The notes under the pieces: generated by a model
What the model saw: only the letters and a program-made list of their open reading frames with translations
Database searches by the model: none
Told to the model about the DNA's origin: nothing
Assembly: GCA_026003075.1 (NCBI GenBank)
Contig: BPGO01000003.1
Location: 276,025 to 340,024 of the forward strand
DNA from: Fimbriimonadales bacterium
GTDB taxonomy: Bacteria > Armatimonadota > Fimbriimonadia > Fimbriimonadales > GBS-DC
Length of the DNA: 64,000 nucleotides
Reading direction: 5' to 3'
In this document: one piece after another, positions 40,393 through 64,000 of the stretch
How the letters are laid out: each line of letters opens with the position of its first letter
Numbering within the stretch: the first letter of the stretch is position 1
Program-made: the position numbers and the translations under genes

Positions 40393-41754
40393 TCATCGCG
40401 GCGACATCTTGACCTCCAAGTGATCGGGATGGAACTCTATCCAGTACACATTACCATGTTTATCCACATCCCACAGGTTAATCAGCCGCCCGACCAAGTT
40501 CTCCTGATGTCCATAGCTGCCTATCAGGCGCAGATTCGAAGCGCGAGGACGGACAAAACGCCCATCCGGCGTGAACTCAATAATCCAGAAGCCGTCCATC
40601 AGGGCTATGCCACGATCCGGGTCAGCAGGATCGTCCACCGTAATCCAATGGCGGCGTGTCGCGCTATAGACCCGATAGAGATGTCCCGCCTCATCCGTCG
40701 CAATCGCAAGGTGTCTCTCCAGGTTCACCGTGCCCACAAACCCATCCCACACATTCGGAACGCGGTCCGAAATGTCCAGATGCCAGACGAACTTCCTGAC
40801 CACCTCGCCATCAGGACGAACACGCTTGTACGGATCCTTTCTAAAGAGCGTGATTGTATCGGTTTGGGGTTCCTCGTCAGAGCGCGAGTGGATCACAACA
40901 AACTGAACCTCCATCCGCCCCTCCGCTCGTACATCGTAATCGCCTATGATAATCTCGCCCCGATAGCGGTCGATTCCCGCCTGATCATATGATGGGTAAT
41001 CCAGCAGATTGGATCCCCCATCTGGATGGATGACCAGCAAGCGTCCTTCCAATTGCTTTGTTCCACCCTCTTCAGAAACGATTTGGCGAGCCAAGAAGTA
41101 GACCCTTCCGTTGCGATCCACCTCAAAAAACTCAGGTGTGGCGACTTCTGAGTCTAAGCGAAACTCTGTTGCCGCCCGTTTGATCGCCTCCCCCACTGCC
41201 TCCGTGCGCTGCTTGTCGTAGGTTCCGTCGGGGCGGTAGATGGCGACACCACGCTTGGCATCGTCCACATAGAGCCAGCCTTGTTCGTCCACCCGAATTC
41301 GGGAGGGGAAGCCGTGTTTGAGTTTGATGGTGCGCACCCACTGTCCCTGACGATTGTAGACCTGCACCCACGGCGCCAGCTGGTCATCTTCTGTAGAGGT
41401 CTCTGCTTGAGGGGGTAGCTCGAGATTCTTGTCATAGTGGCGCAGAGGGTCGGCGATGTAAAACAGTTGCCCATCCCAGCTGACACAGAAGGTCGTGGGT
41501 CCACCGCCTGGTAGCGGTTCCCGCAACTCGTCGCCGTTCACCTCGCTGATCAGCCGTGAGCCAGGAAAGCGCACCCGCAGCTGGGTCGGCTTCTCACCGT
41601 AGGCAACTTTGAACAGGGAGACGGGCCGTGAGTCGGTTTGGATAGGAGGCGTTCGTCCAAAGCTCACGGCTGCAATGGTCAGCAAGCTAATCAGCACCAG
41701 CAACATCGGTGCGAGTTCACTCAGGGTTTCACTCTTTCGTAGGGTTTTTCGCAT
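40393..41754 (-). CDS. Secreted beta-propeller-like protein, paralogue 2
   Basis: The ATG at 41754 is preferred because GAGGTGA precedes it; a GTG three codons earlier overlaps that site. The hydrophobic signal (ELAPMLLVLISLLTIAAVSFG) is followed by the blade-like pattern of the family: FKVAYGEKPTQLRV, TFCVSWDGQLFYIAD, WVQVYNRQGQWVRTIKL, RIRVDEQGWLYVDDAKRGVA, FEVDRNGRVYFLARQIV, and LWDVDKHGNVYWIEFHPDHLEVKMSPR. The mature chain is about 415 residues. It lies 15 bp downstream of the sigma-receptor A gene, so the two form one transcription unit. It is nearly identical to paralogue 4 (substitutions cluster around the RKDPYKRVRPDGEVVRKF segment). Confidence 0.78.
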   Translation of the reverse strand: MRKTLRKSETLSELAPMLLVLISLLTIAAVSFGRTPPIQTDSRPVSLFKVAYGEKPTQLRVRFPGSRLISEVNGDELREPLPGGGPTTFCVSWDGQLFYIADPLRHYDKNLELPPQAETSTEDDQLAPWVQVYNRQGQWVRTIKLKHGFPSRIRVDEQGWLYVDDAKRGVAIYRPDGTYDKQRTEAVGEAIKRAATEFRLDSEVATPEFFEVDRNGRVYFLARQIVSEEGGTKQLEGRLLVIHPDGGSNLLDYPSYDQAGIDRYRGEIIIGDYDVRAEGRMEVQFVVIHSRSDEEPQTDTITLFRKDPYKRVRPDGEVVRKFVWHLDISDRVPNVWDGFVGTVNLERHLAIATDEAGHLYRVYSATRRHWITVDDPADPDRGIALMDGFWIIEFTPDGRFVRPRASNLRLIGSYGHQENLVGRLINLWDVDKHGNVYWIEFHPDHLEVKMSPR

Positions 41755-41769
41755 GGCTCTCACCTCAAC

Positions 41770-44700
41770 TTAGTTTTGGAGTTGCTGCAATCGGCGCAGG
41801 CGATAGGTTCTTCCTGATTTGTCTTCGCGCTCCATCAGGTCGCCCACCGTATCGGGACGCAAACGCGGGTTACCGCGTGTTGGTAGCGTTAGATGCTCCC
41901 CGTCGTTGATGGACACCCTATTATAGCGCCCCGAAGAGTCGATTACGTCCACCCAAATATAATAGTCTGTTAGCTCGTTAGTTTTCTTATGTCTTATCTC
42001 GTCCCGCCGTGTAAACTCGACGATGAGGGCGACGTGGCTTCCTCTTTTGACGAGGATATCGCCTGGCTGGGCATTCAGGCGGGCTTGTTTATTGTCGTCC
42101 CAGCCGCGCGTGTAGGGATAACTGCCGCTGGCTAAATGTTCGGTTCCGATATCCCACCAGCGTCTGGTCTGTCGCCTGTCGTCCTGTCGCCTATCCCAAC
42201 CCAATCCTGCCATCATCGCCGCTGCACTGATAAGTTTGGAGCAATCGATGCCAAATCCCTGATAGCCGCCCTCTGTGCTACTATCGCGCGTTGTAGGATG
42301 GACACGCCCTCCAAACCAGCAACCGCCCCACTCATACCTCACGCCGATAAACGCCGTCGCCCACTCCACTACGCGCAAACGATAGTTGGCGTCGCTCCCT
42401 TCAAAACGCTCACGCACCGACAGACGCATTGCGGCAGTAGCCTCCTCGCCACGCCTGTCCAGTCTAGCAAATATTTTTCTTCTCCCACTTACATATTCGT
42501 CCCAGTCGCTCTTGGGAATTTTCCCGATCCCTGATACCAGATAGTAGTCCCAGTCTTGATGAGTCACGGCAACGGCGTACCGTTTTGTGCCACGTTCTGC
42601 CCTGAATGAGTAGGTGGGTAAGTTACCTTCAATCTGTCGAAGGGTGTACCAGTAGATTCGGTTGGGGCGTTCTCCTGTGTGATGATGAACCTCCAACCAG
42701 CGGAATTCGAGTTTTGGACCAGGCCAGACACCACATCGTGAAAGGTCACTAACAGAACGCGAGAAGAAATTATTATCTGGGCGCTGTTCTCCTCGTGACC
42801 AGGATACATTCCCAATATAAATACCAGAAGGCTGACGAGTGTATACTATACCTTCAGGAAAGTCGATCTCACTATACCCACCGGTTATTACAGGTATCAA
42901 TTCTATCTCGGTACCGACATAAGGATAGAGCAATTCCTGATTGCTACTTGTTGCACCTCCACGAACTGCGTAGAAGATACCTACATTAAAGATTTGATAC
43001 GTTGTGAACTTAGGTGCAACGCCAACTTTTACCTGCCTTGGATGGTTATCACGATAGTAGCCTGCAAAATTATCAGTGAAGCGGGGTATAAAGTGATAGG
43101 TTCCGAACCGAGTCATCTGGTTCTCAGGAATGCGCACAATAACTGTATGTTCGCCTTCAGTAAAATATGCCGAGTCGATATTTTCAGAATGGATAGGATT
43201 GCGCACATCATTCCCAAAATGAACGTCGATGTGTCCACGCGACACCAAAGGGGTTCTTTGGAGATTAGAACGGGTGTTCTGCAGACGATACCTGATAGCA
43301 AAGTCAAAGGTGCGTTGTTGTGAGTTGTATCCCAAGGCAGTCAGGTTGAGCAGATCCATATGCACCCAACTTGCTGTGGTATCTACATTCACGAAGGAGC
43401 CTATAAAAGTTCCCAGACTCGCTGCAATTTGGTAGGGCACCTCGTTCTCTAATCCACTGTAGGGCGTGCGTTGTATCTGGACGAGGACGCGACCCGGCAG
43501 ATTAGTATTATTCACTGAATGCGTCGTCGTACCTGTCTGCACCTGCAGAAGTAAATCGCCCTGCCAGTGGGGTGAAATCAGATCCAGCTCCACAGTCTGC
43601 GTTTGTTCTGTCTCAGAAAAGATGATCCAGTCGTCACTGGCTATACGCACGAGAGGGTTGCTTACATTGAAACGGAACTCTTTTTTACAAACCCTACCTG
43701 CGCCATTTGTCGAATACTGGAGATAGGTCACTTCTGCAGTGTTTTCCCCGTTCGGCATCCCGATATCTGCTCTTCCAACATCGTTGTTCCAACCATAGGT
43801 GTAGTCAAGGGTTCCCTCTTTAGAGCCGCTTAGGCATCGGCAATATTCACGGATCCCATAGGGGTCGTTGCATTCCCAGTAGTCCAAGTACAACCTGCGT
43901 TCTGGAAACGCCCCCTCGGGGCGATTATTTTTGAAGGTTACATAACTGAAGTAAAGCGTGGGCGGTTCAGGCGAATCCGCAGCATAGAACTTGTACATAT
44001 CCGCAACTGTGGTCGTGCATCTGAGCGATTCATGGTCATGTTCGACAAAATAGTACTCCAACCCAACACGGAAGTCTGCGCATCTACCTGGTAGGAAGCA
44101 GCCTGGCTCGCCGATTCGGCAAAATGACCCTAATAAAGTTCCACCTATTCCAAACTGCGGAAAGTTGAACCTCACTTGGAATGAACTTGGCTGCAGCGTC
44201 GATTGCAACGCAAAAATGAATTGCCCATTCTCGTTCGTAAGGGGATGATTCCCGATCCAGTGGATCGTGCCCGCGGTTGTATGGATTTCCACAACAGCAC
44301 CCGGCACTGGTTTGCCATCAACGTCCCGAATCGTTATCGCTCCCCAAATTAGGCTCTCGCCATCGGCAGGGACGCTCGGCATATGCAGTCCTGCTCTCAC
44401 TTGATATCCATTCTCCAAAGCCTGCGTCAGTGTTCCATTCTGAAGAGCGGCGCTAAGCACTTCATTTGCTATCTGGTTCTCTCGGTCAGTCTGAGCAAAA
44501 GATAACTTAGGAGGGTACACTACTACACCCATCGTCAATAGGATTACCACAGCGCGAACTTGTCTTGCAGCGAGCGAGGCAAGCACTCTATCCCCCCCCC
44601 CCGCGCTTTCATCCAGCGGAAAGACTGGTTGATCATCAACATCAGCACCTCCGCCAATTAATTCGCTCTCTGCTCCCCAAAAGGTTGACAGCATAGTCTG

Positions 44701-45171
44701 TGCTTTTTGACGCATTCGGCAGAATTGGCATTTGACGGTTCCCACACTGACATTTAGGCGGCGTGCAATCTCCTGATAGGTATATCCCTCCAGATAAAGA
44801 TGGAGCATCTCCTGCTGTTGGGGAGAGAGCTGCTCCTCAAGCCTCTGTCGAAGCAGCTGCATTTCGGCGTGTTCTATAAGGCGGGTTTCAGAACCCTCGT
44901 GACCCTCGGGTAAAGGAGCATCCCAGTTTTCAAGCGTGATGTTTCGTTGCGTTGGTGCGCGACGGTTCCAATCAATGGTGCGAAGGCGAAGCCAGCGTCG
45001 GCAAACGGTTCGCGCCCACTGATGCGGGTGATATTCCCAAGGCAGGACACCGAACACCTCCCAAAACTGCAGCAGGACCTCTTGCACGATGTCTTCTGCG
45101 TCTGCGGCGCAGCGCGTCAAGGGCTGGGCTACAAAAAGCATCCAAGCACGCCATTCAGTCTCAGTACACAT
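41770..45171 (-). CDS. Sigma-receptor A: ECF-type sigma factor fused to secreted carboxypeptidase-regulatory-like and NlpC/P60 domains
   Basis: This 1133-residue chain is in frame throughout. Residues 1-165 are a complete ECF sigma factor: region 2 with ADAEDIVQEVLLQFWEVFG, region 4 with LSPQQQEMLHLYLEGYTYQE and IARRLNVSVGTVKCQFCRMR. After an acidic linker comes Gly191-193, encoded by 11 consecutive G. Next is a hydrophobic segment at about 200-221 ending SFAQ, which could be a membrane anchor or a signal peptide. An extracellular domain of the carboxypeptidase-regulatory type follows (WGAITIRDVDGKPVPGAVVE), then beta-rich domains, and finally an NlpC/P60-like domain with catalytic Cys near 976 (GFGIDCSKLI) and His near 1043 (GSHVALIVEF). 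ECF factors with large extracellular extensions are known in Planctomycetes; the G-run joint is the odd feature. TATAAT and AGGGGG precede the ATG. Confidence 0.85.
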   Translation of the reverse strand: MCTETEWRAWMLFVAQPLTRCAADAEDIVQEVLLQFWEVFGVLPWEYHPHQWARTVCRRWLRLRTIDWNRRAPTQRNITLENWDAPLPEGHEGSETRLIEHAEMQLLRQRLEEQLSPQQQEMLHLYLEGYTYQEIARRLNVSVGTVKCQFCRMRQKAQTMLSTFWGAESELIGGGADVDDQPVFPLDESAGGGDRVLASLAARQVRAVVILLTMGVVVYPPKLSFAQTDRENQIANEVLSAALQNGTLTQALENGYQVRAGLHMPSVPADGESLIWGAITIRDVDGKPVPGAVVEIHTTAGTIHWIGNHPLTNENGQFIFALQSTLQPSSFQVRFNFPQFGIGGTLLGSFCRIGEPGCFLPGRCADFRVGLEYYFVEHDHESLRCTTTVADMYKFYAADSPEPPTLYFSYVTFKNNRPEGAFPERRLYLDYWECNDPYGIREYCRCLSGSKEGTLDYTYGWNNDVGRADIGMPNGENTAEVTYLQYSTNGAGRVCKKEFRFNVSNPLVRIASDDWIIFSETEQTQTVELDLISPHWQGDLLLQVQTGTTTHSVNNTNLPGRVLVQIQRTPYSGLENEVPYQIAASLGTFIGSFVNVDTTASWVHMDLLNLTALGYNSQQRTFDFAIRYRLQNTRSNLQRTPLVSRGHIDVHFGNDVRNPIHSENIDSAYFTEGEHTVIVRIPENQMTRFGTYHFIPRFTDNFAGYYRDNHPRQVKVGVAPKFTTYQIFNVGIFYAVRGGATSSNQELLYPYVGTEIELIPVITGGYSEIDFPEGIVYTRQPSGIYIGNVSWSRGEQRPDNNFFSRSVSDLSRCGVWPGPKLEFRWLEVHHHTGERPNRIYWYTLRQIEGNLPTYSFRAERGTKRYAVAVTHQDWDYYLVSGIGKIPKSDWDEYVSGRRKIFARLDRRGEEATAAMRLSVRERFEGSDANYRLRVVEWATAFIGVRYEWGGCWFGGRVHPTTRDSSTEGGYQGFGIDCSKLISAAAMMAGLGWDRRQDDRRQTRRWWDIGTEHLASGSYPYTRGWDDNKQARLNAQPGDILVKRGSHVALIVEFTRRDEIRHKKTNELTDYYIWVDVIDSSGRYNRVSINDGEHLTLPTRGNPRLRPDTVGDLMEREDKSGRTYRLRRLQQLQN
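43309..44580 (-). repeat. Repeat R2, copy 1
   Basis: About 1.27 kb coding the first extracellular domains of A is identical by eye to 48902-50173 in B, offset 5593 bp. Outside it, the C-terminal halves of A and B diverge strongly. Confidence 0.85.
44592..44602 (-). repeat. Poly-G tract of sigma-receptor A (11 G, in frame)
   Basis: Eleven consecutive C on the plus strand encode Gly at the joint between the sigma domain and the hydrophobic segment. With 11 the fusion is open; with 12 a TAG follows directly (GGA TAG); with 10 a stop comes after about 15 codons. Confidence 0.9.
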
Positions 45172-45186
45172 CTGTACCCCCTAAGT

Positions 45187-45287
45187 ATTATACATTACTA
45201 TTAGTTACACACAGACAAGATTCCTGCCATTTAGGTACCGAATTGGCGAGGCCATGCGGAACCTTGTTTGCCTGAGTCAGGTACACT
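45187..45287. promoter_or_regulatory. Divergent promoters of the sigma-receptor and purL 5' fragment
   Basis: On the minus strand TATAAT (45187-45192) lies 15 nt before the sigma ATG. On the plus strand GGTACACT (TACACT 45282-45287) ends 8 nt before the purL ATG. Copies lie at 59810-59910 (identical) and around 50785-50882, where the minus-strand box is degraded. Confidence 0.6.
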
Positions 45288-45295
45288 TTGTCCTG

Positions 45296-45985
45296 ATGAG
45301 GACTCTCTGCCGTGCGCCCGAAGTGTGGCGCGACATGGGACTGACCGACGCCGAGTACCAACGCATTGCGGACCTGATGGGACGCGAGCCGACCGATGTG
45401 GAACTGGGCATGTTCGCCGTGATGTGGTCGGAACACTGCGGTTATAAATACTCGCGCCCGGTATTGAGCCTCTTTAAAAGGTATCGCGAGTCGCTGGAGG
45501 GCGCAGGCTTTGAGAACGCAGGCGTGATACCGCTGGATGAGAATCTGGGCGTCGCGTTCAAGGTGGAGAGCCATAACCATCCTTCGGCGGTGGAACCTCA
45601 TCAGGGGGCGGCGACGGGCGTGGGGGGCATCATCCGCGATATCTTCACGATGGGCGCCCGCCCTATCGCGATTTTGGACTCGCTGCGCTTTGGTCCCTTG
45701 AACGAGCCGCGCAACCGCTACCTGTTTGAGCATGTGGTGGAGGGCATCTCCAGCTACGGCAACTGCATCGGCGTGCCGACGGTTGCGGGCGAGGTCTATT
45801 TCCATCCGTGTTATTCGGGCAACCCGTTGGTGAACGCGATGGCGGTCGGCGTCGTGGGGATGGCGCTGAACCTGCTGACGGCGATTATCGTCTCGCGCCT
45901 GACGCCCCCACCTCCTACGCATATTCAGGAGATTGTGGACTCGATTCGCATTCCGCGCGGCGCAGGCGAGGCGTTGGAGGAATAA
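45296..45985 (+). pseudogene. Chimeric purL 5' fragment fused to symporter 3' end (junction type 1)
   Basis: The frame begins as phosphoribosylformylglycinamidine synthase: [39 protein letters not shown], the ATP/FGAR-site segment [15 protein letters not shown] and [20 protein letters not shown]. It covers about the first 184 of roughly 740 expected residues. At about 45846 it switches, in frame, to the last 45 residues of the sodium:solute symporter ([20 protein letters not shown], then RGAGEALEE). The product of 229 residues lacks most of the PurL active site and would not be functional. The start ATG and the TACACT promoter are those of the parent gene. This is a duplication scar rather than a gene. 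Confidence 0.88.
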
Positions 45986-45990
45986 CAAAA

Positions 45991-46017
45991 GCAGGGATGC
46001 AAAACTTGCATCCCTGC
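45991..46017. terminator. Bidirectional hairpin terminator, second copy
   Basis: Identical to the 12-bp-stem hairpin at 36366-36392, here between the purL/symporter scar and propeller 3. Confidence 0.75.
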
Positions 46018-46027
46018 CCAATAAACT

Positions 46028-47314
46028 CTACTGCCTTGGTGACATCATTACGCGCAAGTGGTCTGCCTGAAACTCCACCCAGTACACATTTCCGTCGCGA
46101 TCGACGTCGCACAATCTGTTGGCGAAATCGGTTTCCAGCGGCAGATTGCGCGCACGCACACTTCTGAAATGACCCTGTGCGTCGAACTCCACGATTGCGA
46201 AGCCCCGATCTACGGTAAGCCATTCTCTCGCAGAAGCGGTCGGAATAGCATGCCGCTCGATACGGGACGCCAGGTAAATCCGATATAGACGACCTTCGTT
46301 GTCCGTCATCACATTATCTGGCAACCAGCCGCGATAGGTGAATACATACGCATCGAAAAGATTAGGCGCGTGCTGCGCGATGTCTACTTGCCACGAGAAG
46401 GTTCTCAAGACCTCACCGCTTGAATCGACGACCTTGTAAGGGAGAGATGTATAAAGGTTGCACTGTTCCCTTTTGATTTCACGCTGTTCGCCAACGTCGT
46501 ACAAGACGGTTTCATGCTGCCGAATGTATCCCTCTGTGAGAGGACGCTGGTAGTTAGCGGTGATGATTTCCCCACGATACCGATCAATACCCAGTGGGTT
46601 GAAAATTTCTATCGGGACAAGACGAGTCTGACCGTCTGGCGAAACGATTAGCAGATTGTTTAGTCCTGACTCACCTTCTGGCACAGCCTCGCGACTCAAG
46701 AACACCCAGAAATAGATGCGTCCAAGACTATCTACCTCGCGAAAGATGACCTTTTCCAAGTTATACTGGACACGCGCCGCACGTACCGAGCGTTGTAGCT
46801 GTTCAGACAAGGTCTTGTTGTAGCTCCCGTCAGAGTTGTAGACCTCCACCCCTTCATCGCCGCCAACATACAGGCGTCCGTCCCGATCCACCCGAAAATA
46901 GGAAGGGCGTCCCTTAATTATCTTGATCGTTCTCACCCATTCTCCCCTTCGGTTGTACACCTGTATCCACGGGGGCGATTCTTCCTTGGCTTCACGGACA
47001 GGAGTGTTCTCGTCGTCAAATTTAGGTATGGCGCGCATTGAGTCGCAAAAGTAAAAGAGTTGTCCATCCCAACTGACGCAGAAGTTGTCGACGCCCCCAT
47101 ACGGAGGGTCTTCCTCACCCTCCTCAGCGTCATCGCGTGAACAAAACAGCACCATGCGCAGCTGCTGAGGATGGTCGCCAAACTTCACCTTGAACAGTTC
47201 CTGCTCTCGCGGTTGGGCAAGAGCGAGCCTTCCCAACGGCAGAACAGTGAGTAGAGCGAGCAGTATCGCTGTAAGCAGTCGCCAATCCCTTAGTGTTCGT
47301 CGATTATGTCGCAT
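46028..47314 (-). CDS. Secreted beta-propeller-like protein, paralogue 3
   Basis: The 428-residue product starts MRHNRRTLRDWRLLTAILLA with a signal peptide ending near LALAQ. It then shows the family pattern: ELFKVKFGDHPQQLRMVLF, DNFCVSWDGQLFYFCD, WIQVYNRRGEWVRTIKI, FRVDRDGRLYVGGDEGVEVY, and the C-terminal LCDVDRDGNVYWVEFQADHL. The gene lies 3 bp downstream of receptor B on the same strand and is therefore cotranscribed with it. The protein is identical to paralogue 5. A propeller gene at the 3' side of every sigma-receptor gene argues for a joint function outside the cell, but no enzymatic motif is visible. Confidence 0.78.
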   Translation of the reverse strand: MRHNRRTLRDWRLLTAILLALLTVLPLGRLALAQPREQELFKVKFGDHPQQLRMVLFCSRDDAEEGEEDPPYGGVDNFCVSWDGQLFYFCDSMRAIPKFDDENTPVREAKEESPPWIQVYNRRGEWVRTIKIIKGRPSYFRVDRDGRLYVGGDEGVEVYNSDGSYNKTLSEQLQRSVRAARVQYNLEKVIFREVDSLGRIYFWVFLSREAVPEGESGLNNLLIVSPDGQTRLVPIEIFNPLGIDRYRGEIITANYQRPLTEGYIRQHETVLYDVGEQREIKREQCNLYTSLPYKVVDSSGEVLRTFSWQVDIAQHAPNLFDAYVFTYRGWLPDNVMTDNEGRLYRIYLASRIERHAIPTASAREWLTVDRGFAIVEFDAQGHFRSVRARNLPLETDFANRLCDVDRDGNVYWVEFQADHLRVMMSPRQ

Positions 47315-47317
47315 AGC

Positions 47318-50236
47318 TTACCTCCTTCTATCGGGAATGCGTCGAACTTGATACCCGTGCGTGTTTGCATCCATGAGCCTTCTTAAGGCACACTGATGCC
47401 GTCCCGTGCGGTGATTTCCAGAAGCCTGCTGAGTCTGAATACGAACCCTATTCGCGCTCGCACCCGTTGACTCGAGTAGATCGATGCGAGTTACCAAGTA
47501 GTCAGCAGTCTCTCCTCTTTCGTCCGCGATCGGGGTTTTATCGATACCGTATACGAACATCACATGGCCTCTCCATTTCACTCTTTCTACCAGCTGACCA
47601 GTTCTCTGGTCGCGTACCCAATATGTCTCTGTACGACGCACTAAGATGTCCCCTCTATCAATCTGGATTCGCGCCTCTCTCTCAGAAGAAAAGCCGTTTG
47701 TATAGCTTGACCCCATAAGCATGCCCGTGTTTATCTCTCTCCAATCTGCCGGCCAGGTAATTCCTTCCATTCGCGCGGCGGAAGTAACTAATTTGGAGCA
47801 GTCGATCCCGAAACCTTGATAGCCCCTTGACAAGTCCCTTAATTCAGGGTGTACATATCCTCCGAACCAGCAGCCGCCCAGCTCATATCGCACATTCTGA
47901 AACGCTGTCGCCCACTCCAGCAAGCGCAGCCGATAGTTTGTGTCGCTACCAGTGATGCGTTCACGCACAGAAATGCGCATGGGCGCGCGGGAGTTTGCAT
48001 TATTGATCTTCTCCTTTCCTGTTATGTACTGAGTCCATTCACCTTTTGGTATTCTACCAATCCCCGACACCATATAGTAATTCCAATCAGGATTGGTTAC
48101 GGCAACCGCATAGCGTTTTGTGCCACGCTGAGCCGTTAGGGGAAGGTAAGGCAATTGTGGCGGAGGAATTAGGTATTCATGAAGGATATACCAATACTTT
48201 CGGTTCTTAGTCTCTCCTGTACAGTGCATAACCTCTACCCAACGGAACTCCAGTTTCGGTCCGGGCCAAATCCGCACGCTGTCTGTAGAGGCTTGATCAT
48301 TGCGCTCTATCCGACGGAGATATAGAGTTGTGCGATCGAAGAAATCGCTCCTGCCGACGGGCTTAGGCTCTCCGTTGCTCCAGTTGACTTGCCCGACGTA
48401 GACGCTTGTGCGTGGAATCGTGCCGTAGGAATAGCGGGTAGGCAAATCCACCTCACTATCCGCCCCCAGGACAAAAGCGACGATATCGATCGCATCACCA
48501 GCAAAAGGAAACATCAATCGCTCTCTCGTCTGGTTGTTGAGTTGAGTGATATTACGGATTGCGTAAGCAGTCTCTAACCCCCTCAATGTGGGCGTCCTGA
48601 ACGAAAGCGCTCGCCCAACGACCACCTGCCTTGGTTGCTCGTCGCGGTAATATCGAGCAAAATTATCGGTAAAGCGCGGGATAAAGTGATAGGTTCCGAA
48701 CCGAGTCATCTGGTTCTCAGGAATGCGCACAATAACGGTGTGTTCGCCCTCGGTGAAATATTCTGAGGCAATGTTTTCGGAATGAATAGGATTGCGCACA
48801 TCATTCCCAAAATGAACGTCGATGCGTCCCTGAGACACCAGAGGGGTTCGTTGTAGATTAGAACGGGTATTCCGCAGACGATATCTGATAGCAAAGTCGA
48901 AGGTGCGTTGTTGTGAGTTGTATCCCAAGGCAGTCAGGTTGAGCAGATCCATATGCACCCAACTTGCTGTGGTATCTACATTCACGAAGGAGCCTATAAA
49001 AGTTCCCAGACTCGCTGCAATTTGGTAGGGCACCTCGTTCTCTAATCCACTGTAGGGCGTGCGTTGTATCTGGACGAGGACGCGACCCGGCAGATTAGTA
49101 TTATTCACTGAATGCGTCGTCGTACCTGTCTGCACCTGCAGAAGTAAATCGCCCTGCCAGTGGGGTGAAATCAGATCCAGCTCCACAGTCTGCGTTTGTT
49201 CTGTCTCAGAAAAGATGATCCAGTCGTCACTGGCTATACGCACGAGAGGGTTGCTTACATTGAAACGGAACTCTTTTTTACAAACCCTACCTGCGCCATT
49301 TGTCGAATACTGGAGATAGGTCACTTCTGCAGTGTTTTCCCCGTTCGGCATCCCGATATCTGCTCTTCCAACATCGTTGTTCCAACCATAGGTGTAGTCA
49401 AGGGTTCCCTCTTTAGAGCCGCTTAGGCATCGGCAATATTCACGGATCCCATAGGGGTCGTTGCATTCCCAGTAGTCCAAGTACAACCTGCGTTCTGGAA
49501 ACGCCCCCTCGGGGCGATTATTTTTGAAGGTTACATAACTGAAGTAAAGCGTGGGCGGTTCAGGCGAATCCGCAGCATAGAACTTGTACATATCCGCAAC
49601 TGTGGTCGTGCATCTGAGCGATTCATGGTCATGTTCGACAAAATAGTACTCCAACCCAACACGGAAGTCTGCGCATCTACCTGGTAGGAAGCAGCCTGGC
49701 TCGCCGATTCGGCAAAATGACCCTAATAAAGTTCCACCTATTCCAAACTGCGGAAAGTTGAACCTCACTTGGAATGAACTTGGCTGCAGCGTCGATTGCA
49801 ACGCAAAAATGAATTGCCCATTCTCGTTCGTAAGGGGATGATTCCCGATCCAGTGGATCGTGCCCGCGGTTGTATGGATTTCCACAACAGCACCCGGCAC
49901 TGGTTTGCCATCAACGTCCCGAATCGTTATCGCTCCCCAAATTAGGCTCTCGCCATCGGCAGGGACGCTCGGCATATGCAGTCCTGCTCTCACTTGATAT
50001 CCATTCTCCAAAGCCTGCGTCAGTGTTCCATTCTGAAGAGCGGCGCTAAGCACTTCATTTGCTATCTGGTTCTCTCGGTCAGTCTGAGCAAAAGATAACT
50101 TAGGAGGGTACACTACTACACCCATCGTCAATAGGATTACCACAGCGCGAACTTGTCTTGCAGCGAGCGAGGCAAGCAGTCTAACCCCCCCCCCCCGCGC
50201 TTTCATCCAGCGGAAAGACTGGTTGGTCATCAGCAT
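47318..50236 (-). CDS. Receptor part B: secreted carboxypeptidase-regulatory-like and NlpC/P60-like protein, out of frame with its sigma domain
   Basis: Because the G-run has 12 G here, this part is not continuous with the sigma frame upstream. It can be read from an internal ATG (50236) with GAAGGTG about 4 nt upstream, passing through the G-run into the hydrophobic segment ending SFAQ, which would then serve as a signal peptide. The first 420 residues after that are identical to receptor A (WGAITIRDVDGKPVPGAVVE onward). The C-terminal half differs but ends in a similar NlpC/P60-like domain (LLEWATAFQNVRYELGGCWF, catalytic Cys in GFGIDCSKLV, His in WRGHVMFVYG). The result is a separate secreted protein of about 970 residues, if the internal start is used. 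Its propeller partner lies 3 bp downstream. Confidence 0.7.
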   Translation of the reverse strand: MLMTNQSFRWMKARGGGVRLLASLAARQVRAVVILLTMGVVVYPPKLSFAQTDRENQIANEVLSAALQNGTLTQALENGYQVRAGLHMPSVPADGESLIWGAITIRDVDGKPVPGAVVEIHTTAGTIHWIGNHPLTNENGQFIFALQSTLQPSSFQVRFNFPQFGIGGTLLGSFCRIGEPGCFLPGRCADFRVGLEYYFVEHDHESLRCTTTVADMYKFYAADSPEPPTLYFSYVTFKNNRPEGAFPERRLYLDYWECNDPYGIREYCRCLSGSKEGTLDYTYGWNNDVGRADIGMPNGENTAEVTYLQYSTNGAGRVCKKEFRFNVSNPLVRIASDDWIIFSETEQTQTVELDLISPHWQGDLLLQVQTGTTTHSVNNTNLPGRVLVQIQRTPYSGLENEVPYQIAASLGTFIGSFVNVDTTASWVHMDLLNLTALGYNSQQRTFDFAIRYRLRNTRSNLQRTPLVSQGRIDVHFGNDVRNPIHSENIASEYFTEGEHTVIVRIPENQMTRFGTYHFIPRFTDNFARYYRDEQPRQVVVGRALSFRTPTLRGLETAYAIRNITQLNNQTRERLMFPFAGDAIDIVAFVLGADSEVDLPTRYSYGTIPRTSVYVGQVNWSNGEPKPVGRSDFFDRTTLYLRRIERNDQASTDSVRIWPGPKLEFRWVEVMHCTGETKNRKYWYILHEYLIPPPQLPYLPLTAQRGTKRYAVAVTNPDWNYYMVSGIGRIPKGEWTQYITGKEKINNANSRAPMRISVRERITGSDTNYRLRLLEWATAFQNVRYELGGCWFGGYVHPELRDLSRGYQGFGIDCSKLVTSAARMEGITWPADWREINTGMLMGSSYTNGFSSEREARIQIDRGDILVRRTETYWVRDQRTGQLVERVKWRGHVMFVYGIDKTPIADERGETADYLVTRIDLLESTGASANRVRIQTQQASGNHRTGRHQCALRRLMDANTHGYQVRRIPDRRR
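48902..50173 (-). repeat. Repeat R2, copy 2
   Basis: Identical by eye to 43309-44580. The identity ends 11 nt short of the G-run, with two mismatches next to the run. Confidence 0.85.
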
Positions 50237-50766
50237 TAGCACCTTCACCCTTTAATTCGCTTTCAGACCCCCAAAAGGTTGACAGCACCGTCTGTGCTCT
50301 TTGACGAATTCGGCAGAATTGGCATTTGACGGCTCCTACACTGACATTTAGGCGGCGTGCAATCTCCTGATAGGTATATCCCTCCAGATAAAGATGGAGC
50401 ATCTCCTGCTGTTGGGGAGAGAGCCGCTCCTCAAGCCTCTGTCGAAGCAGCTGCATTTCGGCGTGTTCTATAAGGCGGGTTTCAGAACCCTCGTGACCTT
50501 CGGGTAAAGGCGTATTCCTGTCTTCAAGTGGGCTGTTTCGTTGCGCTGCGGCGTGGCGGTTTCGGTCAGTGGCGCGAAAGCGAATCCAGCGTCGGCAAAC
50601 GGTTCGCGCCCACTGATGCGGGTGATATTCCCAAGGCAGGACACCTGAACACCTCCCAAAACTGCAGCAGGACCTCTTGCACGGTATCTTCCGCGTCTGC
50701 CGCGCAGCGCGTCAAGGGCTGGGCTACCGAGAGCATCCAAGCACGCCATTCAGTCTCGGTACACAT
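50181..50766 (-). pseudogene. ECF sigma domain of copy B, frameshifted
   Basis: From ATG 50766 the frame reads as the other sigma copies (TEWRAWMLSVAQPLTR, AEDTVQEVLLQFWEVF). Compared with copy A there is one extra base at about 50646, after which the frame is lost and the unshifted reading stops after 66 codons. The rest of the sigma factor is preserved in another frame (LSPQQQEMLHLYLEGYTYQE, RRLNVSVGAVKCQFCRIR), ending DESAGGGG and TAG at the G-run. Apart from this base and the G-run there is no net indel between A and B over this stretch, although they differ by about a tenth of positions. Sigma B is inactive unless the extra base is an assembly error. Confidence 0.8.
50185..50196 (-). repeat. 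Poly-G tract of sigma-receptor B (12 G, out of frame)
   Basis: Twelve G lead to GGT TAG directly after the tract. Eleven would continue as GTT AGA CTG into the receptor frame, matching the in-frame state of copy A. Confidence 0.9.
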
Positions 50767-50890
50767 CCGTACCCCCTAGGTGTTATATATTCTATTAGTC
50801 TCACACAGACCAAGATTCCTGCTATTTAGGTACCGAATTGGCGAGGCCATGCGGAACCTTGTTTGCCTGAGTCAGGTACACTTTGTCCTG

Positions 50891-51934
50891 ATGAGGACTC
50901 TCTGCCGTGCGCCCGAAGTGTGGCGCGACATGGGACTGACCGACGCCGAGTACCAACGCATTGCGGACCTGATGGGACGCGAGCCGACCGATGTGGAACT
51001 GGGCATGTTCGCCGTGATGTGGTCGGAACACTGCGGTTATAAATACTCGCGCCCGGTATTGAGCCTCTTTAAAAGGTATCGCGAGTCGCTGGAGGGCGCA
51101 GGCTTTGAGAACGCAGGCGTGATACCGCTGGATGAGAATCTGGGCGTCGCGTTCAAGGTGGAGAGCCATAACCATCCTTCGGCGGTGGAACCTCATCAGG
51201 GGGCGGCGACGGGCGTGGGGGGCATCATCCGCGATATCTTCACGATGGGCGCCCGCCCTATCGCGATTTTGGACTCGCTGCGCTTTGGTCCCTTGAACGA
51301 GCCGCGCAACCGCTACCTGTTTGAGCATGTGGTGGAGGGCATCTCCAGCTACGGCAACTGCATCGGCGTGCCGACGGTTGCGGGCGAGGTCTATTTCCAT
51401 CCGTGTTATTCGGGCAACCCGTTGGTGAACGCGATGGCGGTGGGCGTTGCGCCGCTGAACCGCATCGTGACTGCTCGCGCCGATGCGCCAGGCAGCGCGG
51501 TAATGTATGTCGGCGCCAGCACAGGACGCGACGGCATCCACGGCGCCACTTTCGCCTCCGAAACGCTGGGGGAAGACCAAGAGGAGAAACGCCCCAATGT
51601 GCAAATCGGCGACCCATTCATGGAGAAACTGCTCATCGAAGCCACCTTGGAAGCCCTTGACACGGGCGCGGTGCTGGGCATGCAGGATATGGGCGCCGCA
51701 GGACTGACTTGCACGACTTGCGAGCCGACCTCTAAATCGGGCACAGGCGTGGAAATCGACACGAGCCTCGTGCCCACGCGCGAAGCCGACATGACCCCCT
51801 ACGAGATTATGCTCTCCGAATCGCAGGAGCGAATGTTACTGTATGTGCAGGCGGGACGCGAGGAAGCGGTGGCGGAGGTGTTCCGCAAGTGGGGGCTGAA
51901 CGCGGTGGTGATTGGGCGCGTCATCCTCGATGGC
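50891..51934 (+). pseudogene. purL: purL 5' fragment (junction type 2)
   Basis: The start and the first 550 bp match the fragments at 45296 and 59919. The PurL frame then continues through [19 protein letters not shown], the metal- and ATP-binding [31 protein letters not shown] and [13 protein letters not shown], up to VVIGRV. That is about 345 residues, roughly the first half of a 740-residue synthase. At 51926-51934 it joins the symporter within a shared nonamer, CTCGATGGC. The downstream symporter part is in another frame, so the PurL frame reads nonsense until a stop at 52405. A functional purL must exist elsewhere, probably to the right of this window. Confidence 0.88.
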
Positions 51935-56597: not shown

Positions 56598-59500
56598 TCA
56601 CCTCACCTGACCTTGTATCTTTTTGTTGTACGGACCAAACGCCGTTTCAGGTTGCTGCATCGCGTTGCTACCACCCGACGAGGCGCCTGTTTCATTCCCC
56701 GTTCCATTCGCCCAATTGCCCCGTTCTCCTGCCCAGCTGACCGCTTCCCCGTTGAAGCGAATGCTCCAGGCGCCCAGCTGGTGCACGGGCACATAGCTAA
56801 AGGGGAAGAAGAAGGTACGGACGGCAATTGCTGAGTAAAAGTGGAGCCTGGGCGTGTTGTTCTGATACCACCTGATCTGGATGTTGTTCAGATAGGGAGG
56901 GACTACAAAGGCAGGAGAATCGTGATACCCAATCTGTAGCACCCAGTTAGACGATAACGAGTTATAACTGAGACTAGGTATCGCTGACCTCCATATTGGT
57001 AGTATGCCCAGTGTCTGCGCGACCATCTCGTCTTTGCATACCAAGCATGGGTTATACGATCTTGAGGGCAACAGATGGTGTCCAGCAGCGGCGGTTCAGC
57101 ATCTCTGTCTCCCACCAAAACCCGATAGACCTGCAACGCCTGTCCCGCACCTTCAGGTTCCAGCTTCAAACGGAAGATATTTTGTCCATCAAAAATGTTC
57201 CACTCCTGCCCACGGCTCACTACTCTTACGCGAGCAGCCCCAGAAAGCGTGTAGCCGTTCCGCTGAAAGGCTTGATAGAGCGTTGGATGGATAGTCTCTT
57301 GATCCAGCGCCTGCACGATTGGCTCCCAGTCGGTCTGCTCCCGAACGCGAAACCACCCCTGAAATTGAGGTTCATATGCCAGATAGTACCATAACTGACC
57401 ACCCGTTCCATAGTCGAAATAGCCTTTCGTGAACTGTTCCACGGATTGAACGATCCCCACCTGTGCCCGCTGACGATGGCTGGCAACCACCTGCGTCTGA
57501 TAGGGATCCTGAGACAACCGCCACGGATGATCCACCCTGACCTCCGCCGCCACTAAGCGAGCCGGAGCGTCCATCGCTCCTCCCCACAACAGAGGGACAC
57601 GCTGGTTCGTGCAGGGGTTATCGCGCATTGACCATATCAAGCCACTTCGTGCGTGGTCTTCACCTCCGGAGCGGATTTCTACAGAGATAGCAAGCGTGGT
57701 GATCGCTGCTATATCCCAACTCTCCATCCAGCCCAGCTTCGCGGTTGTTAGCAGCTTGTGAAGGGTGTTCGCCTGGAACTCCAGCGGGGAATTAGTCCAG
57801 TAGTTCCACCAGTACGCCTTTGTGTCCGTGTTGCGAACCCTCGCGTTCAACGGCCACAGGTAGGTGTTATCTGGCACCCACCAGATGCCTTGCCATCCCC
57901 AATCATTCCGCCAGCCACTCTGTCTATCCGCTACCTCCACCGTGCCCATCGTGATCGACACGCCCGCTTGACGAAGCACAGGTAAAATCTCCTTCGTTCC
58001 CCAGAGCGGATCCACGCGTGGGTAAGTAATCAGATACAGCGAACGCCTTTTGTGATGCTCATACTCAAAAGGCAGTTTCTGACCCGGAGCCGCCACCGAA
58101 ACGATATGGGCTTTATGAGGGGCACTTGCTGCCAAGTAGCTCTCGTAGTTTATCTGCTCCGGCGTCCAGTTGGGGTCAGCTAAGCCCGCCTCTTCTCCCT
58201 CTTGAATATAGTCGCGCAACGGCACTGCCATCGACATCGGGCTGCCCAATCGCACCGCCAACCCCACATGCACCCACATCGACGCCGAACCCCGACGACC
58301 TTCGCTATCTTCTACCTCTACACGCACCAGATAACGATATAAGCGCTGATAAAAGTAATGAACCGTGTCCGATTCGCCCCGACCAGAACGTTCCACCACC
58401 TTGTTCGGGTCATCCCCAAAACGCCAGCGATAGGTGAAGGGCGGGGTACCCCCACACTCCAAATCCACCGTTGCGGTCATCGTAATCGTCTGCCACACGC
58501 CTGCAGGTTCTGGCTCCGCCTCCAGCGACACCGCCAGCTCGTTCTGCCGCCGCACCCGGGCAAAGGCGTAGGCGGTGGTTTGCCCGCACAGGATCTCCGT
58601 GCCGTCGGGCAGCCGCCCATACGCCTTCACCGTGCAACTGATGCGGAAACGCTTGCCTGCGTGCGCCTCCGTGAACAGAAAGCCGCCTTCAGGCCAGCGT
58701 GCGCCACCTTCTTCAGGACCTCGCTCAATCACCCAACGCCCCGCCTCCTGTCGCTCGATTTTCCAGGTATAGGTTAGACGACTGACGGCAGGTGGATTTT
58801 CACAGCCCGGTTCCGGGTCTCCAGGGGGATAGCCGGGCGGCCACGGTTTGCCTGGATCGCCGGGTGGGGCGGGTGGTCTCGGCGGGCAAGGGTAGGGGAT
58901 TTGGGGTGGACAGGGATAGGGGTAGGGTGGATCGTTAGGCTCTTCGGGCGGTGGATCGCCTGGTTGGCTTGGTGGGGGAATGTTGCCTCCTTCGCCCTTC
59001 CCCGAATCATCTATCCCAGGCAAATCTATAGGTTGTCTCATTTGCATCATTTGCGGTTGGGGACAGTCGCAGCTGGCTTGCGCTATACATTCCCAAGTGA
59101 CGCGTTTGCCTGGGCAGACCACGATGCTTTGGGGTTTGATACGCGCGATAACGCCTGCGTAGCCAAAGGCAACAAAGCCAAGGAGGATTATGACAAGCAG
59201 ATATTTGCTACTTCCCCCCCCCCCCGCGCTTTCATCCAGCGGAAAGACTGGTTGATCATCAACATCAGCACCTCCGCCAATTAATTCGCTCTCTGCTCCC
59301 CAAAAGGTTGACAGCATAGTCTGTGCTTTTTGACGCATTCGGCAGAATTGGCATTTGACGGTTCCCACACTGACATTTAGGCGGCGTGCAATCTCCTGAT
59401 AGGTATATCCCTCCAGATAAAGATGGAGCATCTCCTGCTGTTGGGGAGAGAGCTGCTCCTCAAGCCTCTGTCGAAGCAGCTGCATTTCGGCGTGTTCTAT

Positions 59501-59794
59501 AAGGCGGGTTTCAGAACCCTCGTGACCCTCGGGTAAAGGAGCATCCCAGTTTTCAAGCGTGATGTTTCGTTGCGTTGGTGCGCGACGGTTCCAATCAATG
59601 GTGCGAAGGCGAAGCCAGCGTCGGCAAACGGTTCGCGCCCACTGATGCGGGTGATATTCCCAAGGCAGGACACCGAACACCTCCCAAAACTGCAGCAGGA
59701 CCTCTTGCACGATGTCTTCTGCGTCTGCGGCGCAGCGCGTCAAGGGCTGGGCTACAAAAAGCATCCAAGCACGCCATTCAGTCTCAGTACACAT
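56598..59794 (-). pseudogene. Sigma-receptor C: ECF sigma factor fused to a Pro-rich, PKD-containing extracellular protein, with a late frameshift
   Basis: Residues 1-190 are identical to the sigma domain of copy A. After the G-run (12 G, in frame: GGGGSSKYLLVIILLGFVAF) a single membrane helix follows, then a Cys-containing segment (CPGKRVTWECIAQASCDCPQ) and a Pro/Gly-rich stalk (about 295-345). Next are Ig- or PKD-like domains (TPPFTYRWRFGDD, VRVEVEDSEGRRG), then an uncharacterised region of about 400 residues. The in-frame reading stops at 56903. Another frame continues with plausible beta-rich sequence (NWVLQIGYHDSPAFVVPPYL, GAWSIRFNGEAVSWAGE) to 56598, only 5 bp before the next gene. I therefore infer one indel at about 56960-57000. 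The in-frame product would still be 963 residues, so it may be functional even as it stands. Confidence 0.78.
59214..59225 (-). repeat. Poly-G tract of sigma-receptor C (12 G, in frame)
   Basis: With 12 G the fusion is open (GGA AGT AGC). One more G gives AAG TAG, a stop within two codons; one fewer gives a stop after about eight codons. Confidence 0.9.
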
Positions 59795-60650: not shown

Positions 60651-61937
60651 CTACTGCCTTGGTGACATCATTACGCGCAAGTGGTCTGCCTGAAACTCCA
60701 CCCAGTACACATTTCCGTCGCGATCGACGTCGCACAATCTGTTGGCGAAATCGGTTTCCAGCGGCAGATTGCGCGCACGCACACTTCTGAAATGACCCTG
60801 TGCGTCGAACTCCACGATTGCGAAGCCCCGATCTACGGTAAGCCATTCTCTCGCAGAAGCGGTCGGAATAGCATGCCGCTCGATACGGGACGCCAGGTAA
60901 ATCCGATATAGACGACCTTCGTTGTCCGTCATCACATTATCTGGCAACCAGCCGCGATAGGTGAATACATACGCATCGAAAAGATTAGGCGCGTGCTGCG
61001 CGATGTCTACTTGCCACGAGAAGGTTCTCAAGACCTCACCGCTTGAATCGACGACCTTGTAAGGGAGAGATGTATAAAGGTTGCACTGTTCCCTTTTGAT
61101 TTCACGCTGTTCGCCAACGTCGTACAAGACGGTTTCATGCTGCCGAATGTATCCCTCTGTGAGAGGACGCTGGTAGTTAGCGGTGATGATTTCCCCACGA
61201 TACCGATCAATACCCAGTGGGTTGAAAATTTCTATCGGGACAAGACGAGTCTGACCGTCTGGCGAAACGATTAGCAGATTGTTTAGTCCTGACTCACCTT
61301 CTGGCACAGCCTCGCGACTCAAGAACACCCAGAAATAGATGCGTCCAAGACTATCTACCTCGCGAAAGATGACCTTTTCCAAGTTATACTGGACACGCGC
61401 CGCACGTACCGAGCGTTGTAGCTGTTCAGACAAGGTCTTGTTGTAGCTCCCGTCAGAGTTGTAGACCTCCACCCCTTCATCGCCGCCAACATACAGGCGT
61501 CCGTCCCGATCCACCCGAAAATAGGAAGGGCGTCCCTTAATTATCTTGATCGTTCTCACCCATTCTCCCCTTCGGTTGTACACCTGTATCCACGGGGGCG
61601 ATTCTTCCTTGGCTTCACGGACAGGAGTGTTCTCGTCGTCAAATTTAGGTATGGCGCGCATTGAGTCGCAAAAGTAAAAGAGTTGTCCATCCCAACTGAC
61701 GCAGAAGTTGTCGACGCCCCCATACGGAGGGTCTTCCTCACCCTCCTCAGCGTCATCGCGTGAACAAAACAGCACCATGCGCAGCTGCTGAGGATGGTCG
61801 CCAAACTTCACCTTGAACAGTTCCTGCTCTCGCGGTTGGGCAAGAGCGAGCCTTCCCAACGGCAGAACAGTGAGTAGAGCGAGCAGTATCGCTGTAAGCA
61901 GTCGCCAATCCCTTAGTGTTCGTCGATTATGTCGCAT
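60651..61937 (-). CDS. Secreted beta-propeller-like protein, paralogue 5
   Basis: The 428-residue protein is identical to paralogue 3 (signal peptide to LALAQ, DNFCVSWDGQLFYFCD, FRVDRDGRLYVGGDEGVEVY, WVEFQADHLRVMMSPRQ). It lies 3 bp downstream of the partial receptor gene at the right edge. Perfect identity at DNA level means duplication or gene conversion was very recent, or that an assembler has placed one repeat twice. Confidence 0.78.
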   Translation of the reverse strand: MRHNRRTLRDWRLLTAILLALLTVLPLGRLALAQPREQELFKVKFGDHPQQLRMVLFCSRDDAEEGEEDPPYGGVDNFCVSWDGQLFYFCDSMRAIPKFDDENTPVREAKEESPPWIQVYNRRGEWVRTIKIIKGRPSYFRVDRDGRLYVGGDEGVEVYNSDGSYNKTLSEQLQRSVRAARVQYNLEKVIFREVDSLGRIYFWVFLSREAVPEGESGLNNLLIVSPDGQTRLVPIEIFNPLGIDRYRGEIITANYQRPLTEGYIRQHETVLYDVGEQREIKREQCNLYTSLPYKVVDSSGEVLRTFSWQVDIAQHAPNLFDAYVFTYRGWLPDNVMTDNEGRLYRIYLASRIERHAIPTASAREWLTVDRGFAIVEFDAQGHFRSVRARNLPLETDFANRLCDVDRDGNVYWVEFQADHLRVMMSPRQ

Positions 61938-61940
61938 AGC

Positions 61941-64000
61941 TTACCTCCTTCTATCGGGAATGCGTCGAACTTGATACCCGTGCGTGTTTGCATCCATGAG
62001 CCTTCTTAAGGCACACTGATGCCGTCCCGTGCGGTGATTTCCAGAAGCCTGCTGAGTCTGAATACGAACCCTATTCGCGCTCGCACCCGTTGACTCGAGT
62101 AGATCGATGCGAGTTACCAAGTAGTCAGCAGTCTCTCCTCTTTCGTCCGCGATCGGGGTTTTATCGATACCGTATACGAACATCACATGGCCTCTCCATT
62201 TCACTCTTTCTACCAGCTGACCAGTTCTCTGGTCGCGTACCCAATATGTCTCTGTACGACGCACTAAGATGTCCCCTCTATCAATCTGGATTCGCGCCTC
62301 TCTCTCAGAAGAAAAGCCGTTTGTATAGCTTGACCCCATAAGCATGCCCGTGTTTATCTCTCTCCAATCTGCCGGCCAGGTAATTCCTTCCATTCGCGCG
62401 GCGGAAGTAACTAATTTGGAGCAGTCGATCCCGAAACCTTGATAGCCCCTTGACAAGTCCCTTAATTCAGGGTGTACATATCCTCCGAACCAGCAGCCGC
62501 CCAGCTCATATCGCACATTCTGAAACGCTGTCGCCCACTCCAGCAAGCGCAGCCGATAGTTTGTGTCGCTACCAGTGATGCGTTCACGCACAGAAATGCG
62601 CATGGGCGCGCGGGAGTTTGCATTATTGATCTTCTCCTTTCCTGTTATGTACTGAGTCCATTCACCTTTTGGTATTCTACCAATCCCCGACACCATATAG
62701 TAATTCCAATCAGGATTGGTTACGGCAACCGCATAGCGTTTTGTGCCACGCTGAGCCGTTAGGGGAAGGTAAGGCAATTGTGGCGGAGGAATTAGGTATT
62801 CATGAAGGATATACCAATACTTTCGGTTCTTAGTCTCTCCTGTACAGTGCATAACCTCTACCCAACGGAACTCCAGTTTCGGTCCGGGCCAAATCCGCAC
62901 GCTGTCTGTAGAGGCTTGATCATTGCGCTCTATCCGACGGAGATATAGAGTTGTGCGATCGAAGAAATCGCTCCTGCCGACGGGCTTAGGCTCTCCGTTG
63001 CTCCAGTTGACTTGCCCGACGTAGACGCTTGTGCGTGGAATCGTGCCGTAGGAATAGCGGGTAGGCAAATCCACCTCACTATCCGCCCCCAGGACAAAAG
63101 CGACGATATCGATCGCATCACCAGCAAAAGGAAACATCAATCGCTCTCTCGTCTGGTTGTTGAGTTGAGTGATATTACGGATTGCGTAAGCAGTCTCTAA
63201 CCCCCTCAATGTGGGCGTCCTGAACGAAAGCGCTCGCCCAACGACCACCTGCCTTGGTTGCTCGTCGCGGTAATATCGAGCAAAATTATCGGTAAAGCGC
63301 GGGATAAAGTGATAGGTTCCGAACCGAGTCATCTGGTTCTCAGGAATGCGCACAATAACGGTGTGTTCGCCCTCGGTGAAATATTCTGAGGCAATGTTTT
63401 CGGAATGAATAGGATTGCGCACATCATTCCCAAAATGAACGTCGATGCGTCCCTGAGACACCAGAGGGGTTCGTTGTAGATTAGAACGGGTATTCCGCAG
63501 ACGATATCTGATAGCAAAGTCGAAGGTGCGTTGTTGTGAGTTGTATCCCAAGGCAGTCAGGTTGAGCAGATCCATATGCACCCAACTTGCTGTGGTATCT
63601 ACATTCACGAAGGAGCCTATAAAAGTTCCCAGACTCGCTGCAATTTGGTAGGGCACCTCGTTCTCTAATCCACTGTAGGGCGTGCGTTGTATCTGGACGA
63701 GGACGCGACCCGGCAGATTAGTATTATTCACTGAATGCGTCGTCGTACCTGTCTGCACCTGCAGAAGTAAATCGCCCTGCCAGTGGGGTGAAATCAGATC
63801 CAGCTCCACAGTCTGCGTTTGTTCTGTCTCAGAAAAGATGATCCAGTCGTCACTGGCTATACGCACGAGAGGGTTGCTTACATTGAAACGGAACTCTTTT
63901 TTACAAACCCTACCTGCGCCATTTGTCGAATACTGGAGATAGGTCACTTCTGCAGTGTTTTCCCCGTTCGGCATCCCGATATCTGCTCTTCCAACATCGT
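61941..64000 (-). CDS. Receptor gene of type B, partial (5' part outside the window)
   Basis: The frame is open to the right window edge and identical by eye to 47318-49377. It includes the C-terminal NlpC/P60-like domain (GFGIDCSKLV; WRGHVMFVYG) and part of the extracellular region. The sigma domain and the G-run would lie about 0.8 kb beyond the edge, if the copy is complete. The state of that G-run, 11 or 12, would be a direct test of tract instability between otherwise identical copies. Confidence 0.8.
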   Translation of the reverse strand, partial: DVGRADIGMPNGENTAEVTYLQYSTNGAGRVCKKEFRFNVSNPLVRIASDDWIIFSETEQTQTVELDLISPHWQGDLLLQVQTGTTTHSVNNTNLPGRVLVQIQRTPYSGLENEVPYQIAASLGTFIGSFVNVDTTASWVHMDLLNLTALGYNSQQRTFDFAIRYRLRNTRSNLQRTPLVSQGRIDVHFGNDVRNPIHSENIASEYFTEGEHTVIVRIPENQMTRFGTYHFIPRFTDNFARYYRDEQPRQVVVGRALSFRTPTLRGLETAYAIRNITQLNNQTRERLMFPFAGDAIDIVAFVLGADSEVDLPTRYSYGTIPRTSVYVGQVNWSNGEPKPVGRSDFFDRTTLYLRRIERNDQASTDSVRIWPGPKLEFRWVEVMHCTGETKNRKYWYILHEYLIPPPQLPYLPLTAQRGTKRYAVAVTNPDWNYYMVSGIGRIPKGEWTQYITGKEKINNANSRAPMRISVRERITGSDTNYRLRLLEWATAFQNVRYELGGCWFGGYVHPELRDLSRGYQGFGIDCSKLVTSAARMEGITWPADWREINTGMLMGSSYTNGFSSEREARIQIDRGDILVRRTETYWVRDQRTGQLVERVKWRGHVMFVYGIDKTPIADERGETADYLVTRIDLLESTGASANRVRIQTQQASGNHRTGRHQCALRRLMDANTHGYQVRRIPDRRR

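What the first reader, a model, noticed from the sequence alone, without database searches (positions are those of the whole stretch)
41770..43300. NlpC/P60-like catalytic domain at the outer end of a sigma-factor fusion
Receptors A and B end in a Cys/His peptidase-like domain (GFGIDCSK; then GSHVALIVEF or WRGHVMFVYG). A sigma factor physically linked to a peptidoglycan-hydrolase-like domain would let a cell-wall event report to transcription without a separate anti-sigma factor.
Basis: partly seen in the sequence, partly recalled or inferred. Interest (0 to 1): 0.6.

Follow-up and report, generated by a model that had tools for sequence, protein, structure and literature searches.

The report
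G-tract switch fusing sigma to receptor
In hot-spring Armatimonadota bacteria, a run of about ten to thirteen G's at the end of a sigma-factor gene appears to decide, by its exact length, whether the sigma factor is made joined to a surface receptor with an NlpC/P60-like enzyme domain, made apart from it, or made without it; if true, this is an unusual genetic switch that rewires surface sensing to transcription.

Summary
The domain call is right, by sequence: receptors A and B end in a divergent NlpC/P60 domain (ten-relative profile: 16 PDB chains, 15 of them named NlpC/P60, peptidoglycan endopeptidase or RipA-type proteins, best E 4e-4; hhalign to E. coli MepS/NlpC/MepH 96.6%). Two AF2 models were weak and Foldseek did not confirm the fold. 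The fusion is only one state of the locus. In A the ECF sigma head is in frame with TM-Ig-NlpC through a pure G11 tract. In B and D the tract is G12: the sigma ORF stops at the tract, and the receptor is read from an internal +1-frame start inside the sigma tail. Similar tract loci occur in about eight genomes of this family. Nine of ten examined carry a Shine-Dalgarno plus ATG in the +1 frame, 11-35 codons before the tract, and fused, split and off states are all seen. Two species differ by a single G within 2.1 kb of otherwise identical DNA. Best reading: a poly-G contingency switch that turns a two-gene sigma/receptor operon into a membrane-tethered sigma. Slippage, tethering, release and NlpC activity are inferred. 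Tethered ECF sigmas and poly-G phase variation are both known; I found no report of the combination.

The parts
41770..45171 (-). Copy A: sigma-TM-Ig-NlpC/P60 fused ORF (1133 aa)
44611..45171 (-). A: ECF sigma head (aa 1-187; region 4 at aa 113-155)
   Evidence: Pfam
44592..44602 (-). A: G11 tract at the sigma/receptor junction (C11 on + strand)
44603..44652 (-). A: internal Shine-Dalgarno GGAGGTG and +1-frame ATGs (MLMINQSFRWMKAR..) running into the tract
44494..44550 (-). A: hydrophobic anchor / signal-peptide-like segment ending LSFA|Q
   Evidence: sequence, hydropathy
41773..42411 (-). A: C-terminal NlpC/P60-like domain
40393..41763 (-). Secreted NHL-type beta-propeller partner gene behind A
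47318..50248 (-). Copy B receptor ORF (976 aa), read from the +1 start through the tract
50178..50766 (-). B: sigma head, broken by a frameshift and ending TAG at the tract
50185..50196 (-). B: G12 tract
46028..47314 (-). Beta-propeller partner gene behind B
56903..59794 (-). Copy C: same sigma head fused to a PKD-domain receptor (963 aa)
59214..59225 (-). C: G12 tract, in frame
61941..63998 (-). Copy D receptor, cut by the window end; its G12 tract and intact sigma ORF lie just outside the window
60651..61937 (-). Beta-propeller partner gene behind D

Best explanation
A phase-variable sigma/receptor gene pair. An ECF sigma gene (frame 0) holds in its 3' tail an internal ribosome-binding site and ATG, in the +1 frame, that starts the downstream membrane receptor, as in an overlapping operon. 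A G-tract (10-13 G in the sigma-tail loci with intact heads; up to 17 in others) lies in that overlap, so both frames run into it. Gain or loss of single G's puts the receptor body in the sigma frame (one sigma-TM-receptor protein, a membrane-tethered sigma), in the +1 frame (free sigma plus separate receptor), or in neither (receptor off). In the fused state the sigma would sit at the membrane with an Ig-like/NlpC-P60-like ectodomain outside and act after proteolysis or a conformational change; in the split state it is soluble. Shown: tracts, frames, internal starts, tract-length differences between near-identical loci, constraint on out-of-frame bodies, NlpC/P60 similarity. Inferred: slippage rate, translation of both frames, topology, tethering, release, enzyme activity.
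For: G11 in frame in A, G12 out of frame in B/D, G12 in frame in C and the C8 copy. All three outcomes seen across the family. +1 frame with an ATG start enters the tract in every sigma-tail head except the tail-less L086/L091 type and the shifted L045; +2 never does; control for the joint pattern at random CDS positions 25%. Shine-Dalgarno of 5-8 nt before a +1 ATG in 9 of 10 loci; control ATGs 6.4% at >=5 nt (several ATGs per locus make this comparison somewhat generous). G005 G11 vs G010 G10 with 1040+1092 identical flanking nt; G000 G10 vs G005 G11 with 207+338. 8 of 17 tracts >=10 in the genome lie within 250 nt behind a region 4 domain; after collapsing related heads 3 of 12, P about 1e-6. 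Out-of-frame bodies keep long ORFs, dN/dS 0.17-0.63. Fixed two-ORF form without tract in G002.
Against: No reads, RNA or protein data; homopolymer errors in assemblies cannot be excluded, and the window's genome is an 84%-complete MAG. B has a second lesion in its sigma head. The L086/L091 sigma tracts and L045 do not fit the simple scheme. One putative sigma (L156, G014) has no Pfam match. The phylum-wide SD/ATG/poly-G pattern is not specific to sigma genes.
Confidence: 0.6

Rival explanations
1. The fused ORF is the working form everywhere. Frame differences at the tract are homopolymer sequencing or assembly errors, and the tract is merely a glycine linker.
For: Homopolymers are error-prone, and all genomes used are draft or MAG-type assemblies apart from single-contig G010.
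Against: A Gly linker needs no pure G run: GGG is 186 of 836 Gly codons in sampled window genes. The internal SD+ATG in +1 and its absence in +2 are unexplained. Contigs with k99/k141/NODE names look like short-read assemblies, where homopolymer indels are rarer (own knowledge). G002 has the split arrangement without any tract.
Confidence: 0.17
2. The normal product is two proteins, sigma and receptor from overlapping genes, and the fused ORFs of A and C are accidental or minor; slippage during transcription or translation may also make both from one DNA sequence.
For: Fixed split form in G002; separate adjacent genes in G014:C2; internal SD+ATG.
Against: Fused forms occur in several independent heads (A/C/C8 copy, G010 L139, G011, G017); DNA tract length really differs between near-identical loci.
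Confidence: 0.15
3. The G-tract is mainly a recombination joint for swapping receptor bodies onto a conserved sigma head or leader; its length has no switching role.
For: A vs C: 100% identity in the 150 nt before the tract, 31% after; BLAST boundaries at the tract. L095 and L084 share a leader but not a body.
Against: Does not explain the conserved +1 start and SD, or single-G differences inside otherwise identical loci.
Confidence: 0.08

Closest known systems
ECF sigma factors fused to transmembrane/extracytoplasmic parts (ECF52 SCO4117, ECF48, ECF53, IutY)
   Same: Sigma head, TM helix and extracytoplasmic domain in one protein; proteolytic release is shown for IutY (PMC8999054)
   Different: No zinc anti-sigma domain found here; ectodomain is Ig-like plus NlpC/P60-like; fusion depends on a G-tract and on an internal +1 start
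Poly-G contingency loci (Neisseria hmbR/hpuAB, Campylobacter)
   Same: Coding-region G-tract of about 10 whose length sets the reading frame (PMC3786947, PMC5084427)
   Different: Usually on/off of one surface gene; here it would choose between sigma-fused, split and off, and the switched protein includes a sigma factor; reversible switching not shown
NlpC/P60 peptidases (RipA/RipB, MepS)
   Same: Tyr, Asp-Cys, Gly-Asp and His motifs in the same order; profile matches
   Different: Below Pfam cut-off, third position D/E/H, insert before the Cys motif, found as the tail of a sigma-operon receptor

Membership tests
NlpC/P60 superfamily | Profile similarity over the catalytic core | tested here: met
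   hhalign 96.6%, E 6e-10; 16 PDB chains at E<=5, 15 named NlpC/P60, peptidoglycan endopeptidase or RipA-type; single sequences below the Pfam cut-off
NlpC/P60 superfamily | Catalytic Cys and His in conserved context | tested here: met
   Asp-Cys and His invariant in ten relatives
NlpC/P60 superfamily | Third polar residue (H/N/Q) | tested here: inconclusive
   E or D in most, H in the HRbin15 relative, aligned by eye
NlpC/P60 superfamily | Papain-like fold | tested here: inconclusive
   AF2 pLDDT 39 and 67; Foldseek returned no NlpC/P60 match among the 50 listed
ECF sigma factor | Sigma-70 regions 2 and 4, no region 3 | tested here: met
   Region 4 E 4e-11 in A (above cut-off), region 2 weak in A but above cut-off in relatives L044 and L038
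Membrane-fused ECF sigma (ECF52/IutY-like) | Sigma and TM plus extracytoplasmic part in one ORF | tested here: met
   A and C; not met in B and D
Membrane-fused ECF sigma (ECF52/IutY-like) | Fused anti-sigma (ZAS) domain | tested here: not met
   No such Pfam match in A, B or C; so it is not filed as an ECF52 member
Poly-G contingency locus | Tract changes reading frame, and length varies between close relatives | tested here: met
Poly-G contingency locus | High-frequency reversible switching within a clone | not testable with these tools
   No reads or cultures available

The most novel reading that the evidence does not exclude
A hypermutable G-tract sets, cell by cell, whether an alternative sigma factor is soluble or built into a membrane receptor with a cell-wall-hydrolase-like ectodomain, and the same tract is the joint at which receptor modules are exchanged on one sigma head.
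Probability: 0.4. Interest if true: 0.85.

Novelty: new variant of a known kind. Interest (0 to 1): 0.7.

Why it matters
Phase variation is usually on/off control of surface proteins. A tract that decides whether a sigma factor is free or covalently tied to a receptor would randomise the wiring of signal transduction itself, in a little-studied thermophilic lineage, and could be tested by sequencing one short amplicon. It also offers a natural series, from two overlapping genes to a fusion, for how membrane-tethered sigma factors arise.

Tried and rejected
AF2 of the NlpC-like domain twice with six-sequence alignments: weak models; the fold search with the better one gave no significant match. 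'B is also a fusion' rejected. Anti-sigma domain: none found. 'The tracts are chance' rejected. Sigma-tail tracts outside the family: none recognised in 20 tract loci of other families of the order, judged by reading the translated flanks and without a family search. Phylum-wide SD/ATG/poly-G pattern: 14 of 291 genomes, several outside the family, so not specific. Literature searches for phase-variable ECF sigma factors found nothing matching; one ECF reclassification paper was not held.

Full report
OBSERVATION. In a search of 113 genomes of the order, the C-terminal domain was found in 7 genomes at 11 places, all in this family. Single sequences score below Pfam's cut-off for NLPC_P60, but 5 of 6 members of the first alignment and three further relatives match that model. 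A ten-sequence profile retrieves 16 PDB chains at E<=5, best 4e-4; 15 are named NlpC/P60, peptidoglycan endopeptidase or RipA-type 'invasion' proteins and one (3i86) only 'putative uncharacterized protein'. hhalign to E. coli MepS/NlpC/MepH gives 96.6%. Asp-Cys and His are invariant; the third position, aligned by eye, is E or D in most and H in one relative. AF2 models were weak and Foldseek did not confirm the fold, so this rests on sequence.

The junction between sigma head and membrane part is a pure G-tract. A has G11 and is in frame. B and D have G12 then TTAG: the sigma ORF stops there, and the receptor is open from a start in the +1 frame. C and the copy on contig C8 have G12 then AAG and are in frame with a different, PKD-type receptor. 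The window has no G/C run of 7 or 8, yet runs of 9, 11, 12 and 12; a first-order Markov estimate expects 0.03 runs of 11 or more. In the whole genome, 8 of 17 tracts of at least 10 lie within 250 nt behind a sigma region 4; related heads collapsed, 3 of 12, P about 1e-6. Several others follow a conserved signal-peptide leader joined to secreted bodies, including RHS-like and dockerin-like ones.

FAMILY-WIDE ANATOMY. Named relatives are Fimbriimonadales/Armatimonadetes MAGs. Sigma-tail tracts were read in G000, G005, G006, G009, G010, G011, G017 and, with an upstream ORF that has no Pfam match, G014. In these tails the +1 frame has an ATG-started ORF that enters the tract, often encoding a signal anchor (e.g. 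MMRRRQTILGMMALSLAIANLVAMPHTLAALSEFS), while the +2 frame has none; exceptions are the tail-less heads L086/L091 and L045. A Shine-Dalgarno of 5-8 nt precedes a +1 ATG in nine of ten loci. The body is joined to sigma (A, C, C8 copy, G011, G017, G010 L139), to the +1 start (B, D, G010 L044, G009, L047a) or to neither (G005 L039, G006, L047b). G009 (G12, split) and G011 (G11, fused) share the last 69 nt before the tract. G002 has sigma and receptor overlapping in +1 with no tract. Among 20 tract loci from other families of the order, reading of the translated flanks showed no recognisable sigma tail.

IS THE TRACT VARIABLE? G005 and G010 are identical for 1040 nt before and 1092 nt after the tract but have G11 and G10. 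G000 and G005 are identical for 207 and 338 nt around a secreted-protein tract with G10 (in frame) and G11 (out of frame). Bodies in out-of-frame states keep long ORFs and dN/dS of 0.17-0.63 against relatives. This is what slippage predicts; without reads, homopolymer errors cannot be fully excluded.

MODULARITY AND NEIGHBOURS. A and C are identical over the 150 nt before the tract and unrelated after it, and BLAST homology boundaries coincide with the tract. The NlpC receptors are followed by an NHL-type beta-propeller gene (profile hits to NHL structures); in G014:C26 the sigma lies after the propeller and in G017 no sigma is adjacent.

MECHANISM. Shown: two overlapping frames with starts, a homopolymer in the overlap, three frame outcomes, length differences at near-identical loci, and NlpC/P60 similarity. 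Inferred: replication slippage, initiation at the internal ATG, N-in topology, sigma tethering, and release (perhaps by cleavage near SFA|Q and intramembrane proteolysis, as known for IutY, PMC8999054). Peptidoglycan sensing by the NlpC domain is a guess from the family.

NOVELTY. ECF sigmas fused to TM/ectodomains are known (PMC8999054), and so is poly-G phase variation (PMC3786947, PMC5084427). I found no description of a slippage-switched sigma-receptor fusion in the searchable papers, with the caveat that most subscription journals and one key ECF paper were not held.

Noticed in passing
window 44592-51913 and 59215 to contig end (window-equivalent 66535): A 7.3 kb segment is duplicated at 99.9% identity in an array that ends at the contig end; the array contains purL 5' fragments joined to a symporter gene's 3' end (chimeric ORFs such as 45254-45985), marking duplication junctions.
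   Followed up: partly
L084, L090, L093, L094, L095 (own genome): A related signal-peptide leader (..LTVALTLPPQFGFAAEL.. and variants) is followed by a G-tract and differing secreted bodies, including RHS-like and dockerin-like ones: likely further phase-variable surface proteins.
   Followed up: partly
L140:2640-2650 (G010): G11 tract between region 2 and region 4 of an ECF sigma gene; the two halves are out of frame as assembled.
   Followed up: partly
L106, L136, L137, L152, L155, L160, L193 (family genomes): G10-G11 tract a few nt before the ATG of sigma-like genes with weak Pfam matches; tract length could alter translation start spacing.
   Followed up: partly
L086 and L091 (own genome): Two related sigma genes ending directly in G17 and G10 tracts, with no internal +1 start; they do not fit the scheme for the other loci.
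   Followed up: partly
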